Shown here one piece after another: positions 28,624 to 37,306 of a DNA stretch of 52,620 bases. How positions within the stretch are numbered: position 1 is the first letter of the stretch; the number at the start of each line of letters is the position of its first letter. Location: positions 1 to 52,620 of the forward strand of contig JAAXHO010000214.1 of assembly GCA_012270795.1 (NCBI GenBank). The letters are read 5' to 3'. The stretch comes from Candidatus Poribacteria bacterium (lineage in GTDB: Bacteria; Poribacteria; WGA-4E; WGA-3G). The position numbers and the translations under genes were made by a program. The notes under the pieces are model-generated. The model had not been told where the DNA came from and ran no database searches. It saw nothing but the letters and a program-made list of their open reading frames with translations.

Positions 28624-28876
28624 ACTGAATCTCCTTGTAGTAAGGTAATTATTTGGACACATGGATCAGTGCCCTTGCAAGGCACCCCAACAGTGGGATG
28701 TTTTATTTATTGAATATTTTACAATAAATAAAAACGCAATCAGTCGTTTTGTGGTTAAAAAAACTATTTTTTATAATTTATTGAAAAAAGATTTGACTCC
28801 ATTTAAATTTTATTATATAATAATTGTATGTGAACATTGATTTGCAAAATACGTATACCTTGTTCAGGATAAAAAC

Positions 28877-28987
28877 AACCGCTGAATGCGGTATGGAGCT
28901 GTGGGGAGTCGAACCCCAATCTTCCGAGCGTCAACCACGATTGTTTTACCGATTAAACTACAGCCCCATATCTTACATTCAGCGGTT
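28877..28987. other. Perfect 12-bp inverted repeat enclosing a tRNA-like sequence
   Basis: AACCGCTGAATG (28877-28888) and CATTCAGCGGTT (28976-28987) are perfect complements. Both outer sides continue into five or more A/T, so a transcript from either strand would end the stem in a U-run, as at a bidirectional terminator. Inside, a second stem extends the tRNA acceptor by three pairs (TAT against ATA). A minus-strand transcript would form a long rod capped by the tRNA-like fold, with an internal loop of 5 and 3 bases. The remaining sequence of 28624-29177 is AT-rich (notably 28700-28830) and shows no gene. Confidence 0.7.
28894..28967 (-). tRNA. tRNA-like gene, anticodon uncertain (possibly decayed)
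   Basis: On the minus strand, acceptor GGGGCTG pairs with CAGCTCC (one G-U), followed by TA, a D stem GTTT/AAAC with a GG-containing loop, and a perfect T arm TGGGGTTCGACTCCCCA. The anticodon arm is poor. The best fit is stem TCGTG/CTCGG, with one U-U mismatch and one G-U, around loop GTTGACG, giving UGA (Ser). However, the variable loop is short, unlike tRNA-Ser, and position 37 would be C. No CCA is encoded. It may be a tRNA pseudogene, a tRNA mimic or an unusual tRNA. The amino acid should not be taken as known. Confidence 0.6.
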
Positions 28988-29177
28988 TTTTTAATTATAC
29001 GACAATTCCCACCGAATTACAAATTATTGAGACAATCAGAGGTATTCAATTGTTGAGTTTTGCTATTGTAAAATCCTTACCTTATACGTGTAAGTCTTCC
29101 CTTCTTTTCTTTGAAAATTGCATCTCCCACTCCCAAAATTTCTTATCCCAAATAGGAAAAACTTGTTTTTATCTGTT

Positions 29178-35191: not shown

Positions 35192-37306
35192 TTACTTCCT
35201 GATGACCATTTTTCTTGTAGCGGTGAAACCATCAGCAGAAAGCGTATAGAAATAGATTCCACTTGCCACAGGCTCCCCAAATTCATTATTTCCATCCCAA
35301 TATACCGCGCGAGATTTGTTGTGATATCTTCCAGCAGCGGATTGCCCTAATTCTAATGTTCTTATAAGTTTTCCACCAGCAGAATGTATGGAAATTGTAA
35401 CCTTTGCTGGTTGTGCTAACTGATACGGTATCCACGTTTCTGGGTTAAACGGATTTGGATAGTTTACCCCCAATGCTGTTGTCTTCGGCTGAAATTCTAC
35501 AGACATAAACGTTACTAACAACTGTTCCAAAATAGCTATCCCTTTTAAAAGATGGGGTTCTTTGCCATCAAGCTGCTTTGCAAGCTGGATCCACTTCGTA
35601 AGTTTTTCGGCAGTAAGATTAGACCTTTCTATAGAGTTTTTACTGAGTACGGGTGCTGCTGTAACAGAACCAAATTCCGCTGCGACAAGAAGTAAGTCTA
35701 TAATATCAACATCACCATCGCTGTTGACATCTGGATAAATGTTATTTTGTGCAAGAGCGTTTAAGTCAGGATCATTGAAGTTTGATGCAATAACGACTAA
35801 ATCCAAAATATTGACCACCCCATCGCGGTTCACATCCTCTGGTTGCGTAGAGGGCAGTGTTTGATGGGCATCGTCATATTCCACTAAGTCCCCTATCAAT
35901 CCTGCAATTGGAGAAAAATCTGAAATACGGTTGTTGCTTAAATCAAGGTGTGTCAGTTCTATCATATTCATCAGCGGTGATATATCCGATATTTTGTTAT
36001 CGTGAAGATCTAACATTGTGAGATTTACCATATTTTCCAATGGTGAAATATCCGATATTTTATTGCCATCAAGATCTAATATTGTGAGATTTACCATATC
36101 TCTTAGCGGCGACACATCAAATATTTTGTTATCATCAAGATCAAGGTCCGTGAGTTGTATCATATTTTTCAGTGGGGATATATCCAATATCGTGTTGTTG
36201 TGGAGATCCAATATTGTAAGATTCACCATATTTTTCAGTGGGGATATATCTGATATTTTATTACCATCAAGATCAAGTTCAGTGAGATGTACCATATTTC
36301 TAAGTGGTGATACATCTGTGATATTATTGCCATCAAGGTCTAACACCTTCACATGTGTTAAATTCTCAAAAGGTGATAAATCTGATATTTCGTTATCGTC
36401 AAAATCGAGTTTTCTCAATGTTTTTAAATTTCTTACAGCAGAAATATCAGGTATATTGTTGTCATGAATATCCAACACTACCAATTTTTCCATGCCTTCA
36501 ACTATTGAAATATCCGAAATTCCATTACTATCAAGATCAAGGTTTTCCATCGCCTTCATATTTCTAAGTGGGGACACATCAGCAATCATATTATCGGAAG
36601 CATCTAAGTGAATAAGTTTTGTCATATTTCTGAGAGGGTACACATCAGTGATCAAATTGCTGTCAAAATCTAAGTATGTGAGATTAGTCAAATTTTCTAT
36701 AGGTGACAAGTCTGAAATTCTATTAGCTTCCATATCGAGTTCTGTCAGATTTGTCAAAACACTGAGTGGGGAAATATCCGACAAAGTATGGTTGTAACCG
36801 ATATGCAAATATAAAAGATTTGTCAAAGTACTAAGCGGGGAAAGGTCTGTTATATGGTTACCTCTAATGGATAACCTTACCAATTTTTTCAAGTTTTTTA
36901 GTGGTAAAATACTGGAAATTCTCTGGTTGCGGCTAAGGTCTAATACTAACAAATTATTTAGGTTTTTTAGCGGTGTCAAATCTGAAATACGATTAATTAC
37001 AAGTTGGAGAGAAATAAGATTGACAGCATGCTCAATACCACTTAGATTGCGAATGCCGGATTCAGGAGCATCAAGTGATTTTAAATTTGCCATTTCTGTT
37101 TGCGTAATATCTGCCCCTGCTTCTTTTCCCAGAGCTAATTCAATAGCAGCACGGAGACCTGGATCTGGAATATCGACCGTCTGACCTATGGCTATCCCAT
37201 CAAGTCCTACCAAGAATGAAAACAAGCAAAGAATTAAACTGAAGACATTGGAAAACTTACAATGCTGACGCTTAAGATTTGTGTCTGTTGATAAAGAAAT
37301 ATTCAA
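35192..37306 (-). CDS. Internalin-type LRR surface protein with dockerin-like and sorting domains
   Basis: A 704-residue protein. The start is a TTG at 37306 supported by GGAGGT 8 bases upstream. A signal peptide follows (VFSLILCLFSFLVGLDGIAIG). Residues about 65-455 are about seventeen 22-residue leucine-rich repeats (NLTxLDLDxNxISDISPLxNM), nearly uniform in the middle. A dockerin-like pair is at about 475-530 (DVNRDGVVNILDL, DVNSDGDVDIIDL), and the C-terminus is the PNPFNPETWIPYQLA module ending RKMVIRK. The DNA of the LRR region is a 66-bp tandem repeat of high identity (about 35930-36700), prone to unequal recombination. Likely surface binding, with no catalytic domain. Confidence 0.93.
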   Translation of the reverse strand: MNISLSTDTNLKRQHCKFSNVFSLILCLFSFLVGLDGIAIGQTVDIPDPGLRAAIELALGKEAGADITQTEMANLKSLDAPESGIRNLSGIEHAVNLISLQLVINRISDLTPLKNLNNLLVLDLSRNQRISSILPLKNLKKLVRLSIRGNHITDLSPLSTLTNLLYLHIGYNHTLSDISPLSVLTNLTELDMEANRISDLSPIENLTNLTYLDFDSNLITDVYPLRNMTKLIHLDASDNMIADVSPLRNMKAMENLDLDSNGISDISIVEGMEKLVVLDIHDNNIPDISAVRNLKTLRKLDFDDNEISDLSPFENLTHVKVLDLDGNNITDVSPLRNMVHLTELDLDGNKISDISPLKNMVNLTILDLHNNTILDISPLKNMIQLTDLDLDDNKIFDVSPLRDMVNLTILDLDGNKISDISPLENMVNLTMLDLHDNKISDISPLMNMIELTHLDLSNNRISDFSPIAGLIGDLVEYDDAHQTLPSTQPEDVNRDGVVNILDLVVIASNFNDPDLNALAQNNIYPDVNSDGDVDIIDLLLVAAEFGSVTAAPVLSKNSIERSNLTAEKLTKWIQLAKQLDGKEPHLLKGIAILEQLLVTFMSVEFQPKTTALGVNYPNPFNPETWIPYQLAQPAKVTISIHSAGGKLIRTLELGQSAAGRYHNKSRAVYWDGNNEFGEPVASGIYFYTLSADGFTATRKMVIRK

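What the first reader, a model, noticed from the sequence alone, without database searches (positions are those of the whole stretch)
28877..28987. tRNA-like fold clamped inside a 12-bp perfect inverted repeat ending in a U-run
A minus-strand transcript would form AACCGCUGAAUG:CAUUCAGCGGUU, then a 10-bp extended acceptor stem, then a tRNA-like head with perfect T and D arms but a poor anticodon arm. The best anticodon is UGA, without the long variable arm of tRNA-Ser. The outer stem is followed by UUUUU. It could be a tRNA mimic used as a transcription terminator or RNA-stability element, or a decayed tRNA caught in a palindromic element. I know of no standard feature class that matches.
Basis: partly seen in the sequence, partly recalled or inferred. 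Interest (0 to 1): 0.62.

Follow-up and report, generated by a model that had tools for sequence, protein, structure and literature searches.

The report
Hairpin-clamped alanine-tRNA-like RNA gene
A bacterial lineage known from sponges (Candidatus Poribacteria) carries a small, mobile family of RNA genes that look like alanine tRNAs locked inside a long hairpin but wear anticodons for other amino acids, which suggests either deliberate mistranslation or a new kind of regulatory RNA.

Summary
At window 28877-28987 (- strand) a perfect 12-bp inverted repeat encloses a tRNA-like fold whose anticodon position reads UGA. It is not isolated: about 24 homologous units lie at 16 places in 7 of 85 genomes of the phylum (Candidatus Poribacteria), all in one family. 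The outer stem is kept by compensatory changes (7 of 12 pairs change on both sides). In an ortholog the tRNA core is 76/76 identical while flanking spacer is 63-78% and neighbouring genes 83-87%. The units descend from tRNA-Ala: they keep G3:U70 (17/18) and A73 (18/18), the alanyl-tRNA-synthetase signals, but carry diverse, mostly non-Ala anticodons with U34 and an abnormal C37. Most have a promoter-like sequence whose start lies at the outer stem, a U-run behind it, and an opposing near-consensus promoter on the antisense strand. One copy is absent from the same site in relatives. Best reading: a mobile, stand-alone RNA gene giving a clamped, alanine-chargeable tRNA-like RNA. Mistranslation, an antisense-controlled RNA toxin and a non-decoding carrier remain undecided. 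Closest known kind: allo-tRNAs and natural mistranslating tRNAs. Terminator-only and simple-decay readings are disfavoured.

The parts
28976..28987 (-). 5' arm of outer stem, AACCGCTGAATG
   Evidence: covariation
28877..28888 (-). 3' arm of outer stem, CATTCAGCGGTT
   Evidence: covariation
28893..28968 (-). tRNA-Ala-derived core: acceptor GGGGCUG/CAGCUCC with G3:U70 and A73, D arm, anticodon arm, T arm
28931..28933 (-). anticodon position, UGA, in loop GUUGACG with C37 (ARAGORN's GAC is shifted by one base)
28870..28876 (-). U-run behind the outer stem (GUUUUU); the trailer can also form a local ACCGC-AUUCA-GCGGU terminator hairpin
28994..29022 (-). promoter-like sequence of the tRNA-like strand: TTGTAA-17-TATAAT, with conserved GGTGGG in the spacer; transcript would start at the outer stem
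28793..28821 (+). opposing (antisense) promoter-like sequence: TTGACT-17-TATAAT, reading into the element
28781..29035 (.). whole conserved unit (both promoters plus clamp plus core), 90-96% identical to the ortholog in G013 against 63-78% in the spacer outside

Best explanation
It is a stand-alone, horizontally mobile small-RNA gene derived from tRNA-Ala, of a family found only in Candidatus Poribacteria. Transcription from the adjacent promoter starts at the outer stem and ends at the U-run behind it, giving an RNA of about 115 nt in which a tRNA-like cloverleaf is clamped by a 12-17-bp stem and a 3-bp extension of the acceptor stem (inferred from sequence). The clamp should slow RNase P and require prior cutting of the outer stem (inferred). 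Once released and given CCA, the core should be charged with alanine, because it keeps G3:U70 and A73 while AlaRS does not read the anticodon (inferred from established AlaRS rules). Its anticodon is mostly not an alanine anticodon, so the likely product is an alanine-bearing tRNA-like RNA that either inserts alanine at foreign codons at a low level or serves outside normal decoding. The opposing promoter would make a fully complementary antisense RNA that restrains it (inferred). Shown here: the family, the clamp covariation, the conserved core, the identity elements, the promoter-like sequences, and presence/absence at one site.
For: Homologues with outer stem plus core in G000 (5 places), G013 (3), G016 (2), G012, G014 (tandem pair plus 7-unit array), G028, G004 (3). 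Outer stem: 92% of cells paired, 7 of 12 pairs with both-side changes, 24 compensatory cells against 8.8 in shuffles (0/500); five members not used to build the model also match. Ortholog G013: core 76/76, spacer 63-78%, genes 83-87%; 28881 and 28983 change together G-C to A-T. G3:U70 17/18, A73 18/18. Anticodon loop with U34 18/18, C37 17/18, positions 35-36 variable. Strand: G.U outnumbers A.C by about 24 to 4 in anticodon, acceptor and T stems (3:70 excluded) on the tRNA strand. The -10-like box ends 5-6 nt before the outer stem in 11 of 14 loci; an antisense promoter with 10 or more of 12 matches in most of the 14 loci. Copy in G012 absent at the same site in G006 and G015, flanks 91-96% identical. 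Literature: leader/RCCA pairing slows RNase P (PMC9433436); AlaRS ignores the anticodon and needs G3:U70 (PMC11415595).
Against: C37 is almost unknown in decoding tRNAs, and several copies have lost the D arm, which argues against efficient translation. No expression, processing or charging data exist here. No dedicated AlaRS: one per genome, with or without elements (none found in G007). G3:U70 could partly be inherited from tRNA-Ala rather than selected. Two copies (G012, G000 C185) lack a good U-run. The outer stem shows G.U and A.C about equally (4 and 7), so that stem does not say which strand is the functional one.
Confidence: 0.5

Rival explanations
1. A miniature mobile DNA (MITE- or REP-like palindrome) that once captured a tRNA-Ala. 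The palindrome is kept because a transposase acts on the folded DNA, and the tRNA part is passenger sequence.
For: Presence/absence of about 200-250 bp in G012 against G006/G015; different intergenic sites, tandem array in G014; outer stem favours neither strand; in G004, G014 and G000:C227 a scarce IS1595 transposase or remnant lies within about 1 kb, flanked on both sides by elements in the first two.
Against: Only 1-5 places per genome; outer arms differ in sequence between copies, unlike terminal repeats; ten other IS1595 loci lack any clear element; no target duplication seen; the core is more conserved than the rest in the window ortholog pair; G.U bias on the tRNA strand.
Confidence: 0.22
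2. An RNA toxin with an antisense RNA antitoxin: the alanine-charged tRNA-like RNA with a wrong anticodon poisons translation and the opposing promoter makes the complementary antidote.
For: Near-consensus antisense promoter in most loci; sporadic mobile distribution; diversified anticodons; array next to a CRISPR-like repeat array in G014; an RNA toxin that sequesters tRNA is known (CreT, PMC8501985); odd allo-tRNAs were suggested to belong to transposons or toxin-antitoxin systems (PMC7609411).
Against: No toxicity data; antisense transcript unproven; the CRISPR neighbour is seen at one locus only.
Confidence: 0.15
3. One reading: the palindrome ends transcripts of neighbouring genes and the tRNA head only adds stability.
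For: U-run behind the stem; terminator-like site on the - strand.
Against: A promoter-like sequence precedes it by 5-6 nt in most copies; copies occur in various orientations to neighbours; a terminator does not need a conserved tRNA core with G3:U70 and U33-U34.
Confidence: 0.05
4. A decayed ordinary tRNA gene with a chance or ordinary terminator.
For: Lower tRNA score (49.4 bits), mismatch in the anticodon stem, lost D arms in other copies.
Against: Core 76/76 identical between two species with spacer at 63-78%; outer-stem covariation.
Confidence: 0.05

Closest known systems
allo-tRNAs and irregular tRNA polycistrons (Mukai et al. 2017, as reviewed in PMC7609411)
   Same: tRNA-like genes outside the normal set, very diverse anticodons, amino-acid identity set by the body, some with G3:U70 and alanine insertion, polycistrons, some degenerate copies linked to transposons
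   Different: Allo-tRNAs have a 12-bp acceptor domain (8/4 or 9/3) and a long variable arm; these units have 7/5 geometry, a short variable loop, a tRNA-Ala body, C37 and an outer clamp with opposing promoters
natural mistranslating tRNAs (yeast CUG-Ala tRNA, human tRNA-Ala(ACC); PMC11415595; the Streptomyces tRNA-Pro variants are from memory)
   Same: tRNA-Ala body with a foreign anticodon, possible because AlaRS ignores the anticodon
   Different: As far as I know those are ordinary tRNA genes without hairpin clamp, antisense promoter, C37 or mobility. Mistranslation is not shown here
ordinary bacterial pre-tRNA with paired leader and trailer
   Same: leader/trailer pairing that hinders RNase P (PMC9433436)
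   Different: 12-17-bp covarying stem, against a mean of 6.1 bp in 39 ordinary tRNAs of this genome
MITEs, REPINs and other small palindromic mobile sequences (PMC3116915, PMC2229807)
   Same: small, intergenic, palindromic, present or absent between relatives
   Different: low copy number, no constant terminal repeats, tRNA-Ala core conserved
CreT RNA toxins (PMC8501985)
   Same: small RNA acting on tRNA supply; next to CRISPR-type repeats in one locus here
   Different: no tRNA fold or clamp in CreT as I know it; no Cas genes tested here

Membership tests
functional decoding tRNA | cloverleaf with 7-bp acceptor, T arm, D arm | tested here: met
   for the window copy; D arm lost in several others
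functional decoding tRNA | U33 and purine at 37 | tested here: not met
   U33 16/18, but C37 17/18
tRNA-Ala (AlaRS substrate) | G3:U70 and A73 | tested here: met
   17/18 and 18/18
tRNA-Ala (AlaRS substrate) | charged with alanine in vitro or in vivo | not testable with these tools
   needs biochemistry
tRNA-Ala decoding GCN | anticodon NGC | tested here: not met
   window copy UGA; only two of 18 aligned units (G000:C276 UGC; array unit U4, CGC after shifting the loop by one) have an Ala anticodon
tRNA-Ser(UGA) | long variable arm | tested here: not met
   5-nt variable loop; normal class II Ser(UGA) exists elsewhere
allo-tRNA | 12-bp acceptor domain (8/4 or 9/3) and long variable arm | tested here: not met
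   7+5 pairs, short variable loop; definition from PMC7609411
mistranslating tRNA | insertion of the wrong amino acid shown | not testable with these tools
   identity/anticodon mismatch only
MITE | constant terminal inverted repeats and target duplication | tested here: inconclusive
   outer arms vary between copies; no clear duplication at the one empty site examined
intrinsic terminator | hairpin followed by U-run | tested here: met
   - strand; poor in G012 and G000:C185 copies

The most novel reading that the evidence does not exclude
A mobile RNA-only module in which a clamped alanine-accepting tRNA with a foreign anticodon is the effector (programmed mistranslation or RNA toxin) and a fully complementary antisense RNA from the opposing promoter is its control, with copies diversifying at anticodon positions 35-36.
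Probability: 0.2. Interest if true: 0.88.

Novelty: new variant of a known kind. Interest (0 to 1): 0.62.

Why it matters
If the core is charged with alanine, this would be a mobile, clamp-controlled source of alanine at Ser, Thr, Leu, Pro, Arg, Ile or Val codons in a bacterial phylum with no cultured member that I know of, and a natural system for asking whether bacteria use mistranslating tRNAs on purpose. If it is not used in decoding, it is a set of natural aminoacyl-RNAs freed from the ribosome. Either way the family is probably missed or misnamed by annotation: ARAGORN calls the copies Val, Thr, Ser, Leu or Pro, and the antisense strand yields spurious ORFs.

Tried and rejected
Phage or plasmid origin: blastn found nothing in plasmids and only a weak phage tRNA-His match; viral pattern scans hit unrelated contigs and one phage tRNA array. 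tRNA-Ser: rejected (no long arm; normal Ser(UGA) present). IS1595 as the mover: linkage at three loci, but ten other copies lack a clear element. Dedicated AlaRS paralogue: none; one per genome, with or without elements. Second empty-site test at L098: spoiled by a high-copy repeat in the flank. Matches below about 44 bits with R2 that I inspected are ordinary tRNAs, except the G004 copies at 37.6 and 31.3 bits, which I accept on anatomy. Nearest-tRNA alignment by whole unit is noisy; descent from tRNA-Ala rests on acceptor sequence and G3:U70/A73. Mukai et al. 2017 itself is not held; I rely on the review PMC7609411.

Full report
Observation. The inverted repeat, the cloverleaf, the 10-bp extended acceptor stem and the U-run are all in the sequence at the stated coordinates on the - strand. 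ARAGORN reports tRNA-Val(gac) and Rfam gives 49.4 bits. The fold is far more stable than shuffles (z -5.2).

Homologues. A DNA search of 60 relatives gave four clear homologues outside the window genome. A covariance model of the core (R1) and one that includes the outer stem (R2) were run over the family and over all 85 genomes held for the phylum. Accepted members: G000 C152 (the window), C185, C8, C227, C276; G013 C185, C58, C315; G016 C20, C50; G012 C225; G028 C93; G014 C50, with a tandem pair in one outer stem and an array of seven alternating units; G004 C41, three more divergent copies at 908, 2312 and 4728. Lower-scoring matches that I inspected were ordinary tRNAs. Record titles name two of the contigs Candidatus Poribacteria. 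No related element was found in phage or plasmid records.

The clamp is real. On the 12-sequence alignment A3 the outer stem pairs in 92% of cells, 7 of 12 pairs change on both sides, and compensatory cells number 24 against 8.8 in shuffles with none of 500 as high; sliding the partner by one column drops pairing to 32-39%. Five members found later and not used for the model fit it too. Between the window and its ortholog in G013 the pair 28881/28983 changes from G-C to A-T on both sides. Ordinary tRNAs of the genome have a mean longest leader/trailer helix of 6.1 bp and one of 10.

The core is under constraint. In the same ortholog pair the core is 76/76 identical, the promoter-bearing flanks are 90-96% identical, the spacer outside is 63-78% and the two neighbouring genes are 83-87% identical.

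Identity. Acceptor stems are of two types, GGGGC.G (as in ordinary tRNA-Ala(CGC), seen in L055 and L063) and GGGGGUG (as in ordinary tRNA-Ala(UGC), seen in L037); compare. G3:U70 is present in 17 of 18 aligned units and A73 in all. By established rules these are the main AlaRS determinants, and AlaRS does not read the anticodon (PMC11415595).

Anticodon loop. In the 18 aligned units U34 is invariant, U33 is in 16, C37 in 17, A38 in 14, and positions 35-36 vary (one array unit, U4, is out of register by one in that table and reads CGC when shifted by eye). Anticodons: UGA, UGU, UAG, UGG, UCU, UAU, UAC, UCA, UGC, CGC; the G004 copies read GCC, UUA and CAU by eye. The genome has an ordinary tRNA set in the regions read, including class II Ser(UGA), so the extra UGA is not needed for Ser codons. 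C37 is foreign to normal decoding tRNAs (general knowledge), so efficient decoding is doubtful.

Strand and promoters. Changed pairs in the anticodon, acceptor and T stems are G.U far more often than A.C on the tRNA strand (about 24 to 4, leaving out 3:70), so that strand is probably the folded functional one. The outer stem shows no such bias. A TATAAT-like box ends 5-6 nt before the outer stem in 11 of 14 loci, with a -35-like hexamer 17-18 nt upstream and a conserved GGTGGG in the spacer of many; on the other strand a TTGAC[A/T]-17/18-TATAAT-like promoter reads into the element in most loci, usually beyond shuffles (window scan). These are sequence matches, not expression data.

Mobility. 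The G012 copy lies between a fumarase-like and a transporter-like gene. G006 and G015 have the same neighbours at 91-96% identity without it, and G000 C185 shares only the 193 bp of the unit. Sites differ between copies and share no neighbour. In G004 and G014 a scarce IS1595-type transposase sits between elements, and a remnant lies near the G000 C227 copy, but ten other IS1595 loci have no clear element, so the mover is not identified.

Mechanism and status. Shown: family, covarying clamp, conserved core, AlaRS signals, promoter-like sequences, presence/absence at one site. Inferred: transcript ends, clamp-delayed processing (leader/RCCA pairing slows RNase P, PMC9433436), alanine charging, antisense control. 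Open: what the charged RNA does. I put about 0.5 on a mobile alanine-chargeable RNA gene, with mistranslation, RNA toxin and non-decoding use as branches.

Relation to known kinds. Allo-tRNAs are the nearest described kind: diverse anticodons, body-set identity, some with G3:U70 and alanine insertion, polycistrons, degenerate copies suspected of transposon or toxin-antitoxin links (PMC7609411). Their defining geometry is not met here. I found no description of hairpin-clamped tRNA-Ala derivatives in the papers searched.

Noticed in passing
L049 7226-7630 (G014:C50): CRISPR-like array of 30-bp repeats (CTTCTAATCGAACCAATTTGGAATAGAAAC) about 170 bp before the seven-unit tRNA-like array; Cas genes were not looked for.
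   Followed up: no
L062 1377-2273, L049 5414-6364, L099 4769-5111: IS1595-type transposase or remnant close to tRNA-like elements in three genomes, although strong matches of this transposase number only one to three per genome.
   Followed up: partly
L062 900-997, 2312-2428, 4728-4833 (G004:C41): Three more divergent clamped units with anticodons GCC, UUA (ochre) and CAU; nearby long hairpins (GCACGTGC...GCACGTGC) precede promoter-like boxes.
   Followed up: partly
L098 4484-4774 (G013:C58): High-copy dispersed repeat next to the element, with about 16-29 matches in several genomes of the genus.
   Followed up: no
L051 7041-7253, L054 4914-5123: The antisense of the element reads as short ORFs of the type known from antisense tRNAs; these are likely spurious gene calls.
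   Followed up: no
window 28870-28892: In the window copy the trailer alone can form ACCGC-AUUCA-GCGGU followed by UGUUUUU, an alternative to the outer stem.
   Followed up: no
L100 and L098, 3' side of the elements; window 28826-28868: The leader of the antisense transcript can form a hairpin (TGTCCTT...AAGGACA; TGAACA...TGTTCA in the window) whose sequence differs between copies while pairing is kept, judged by eye.
   Followed up: no
window 35942-36337: 66-bp tandem repeat array, seemingly coding leucine-rich-repeat-like units.
   Followed up: no
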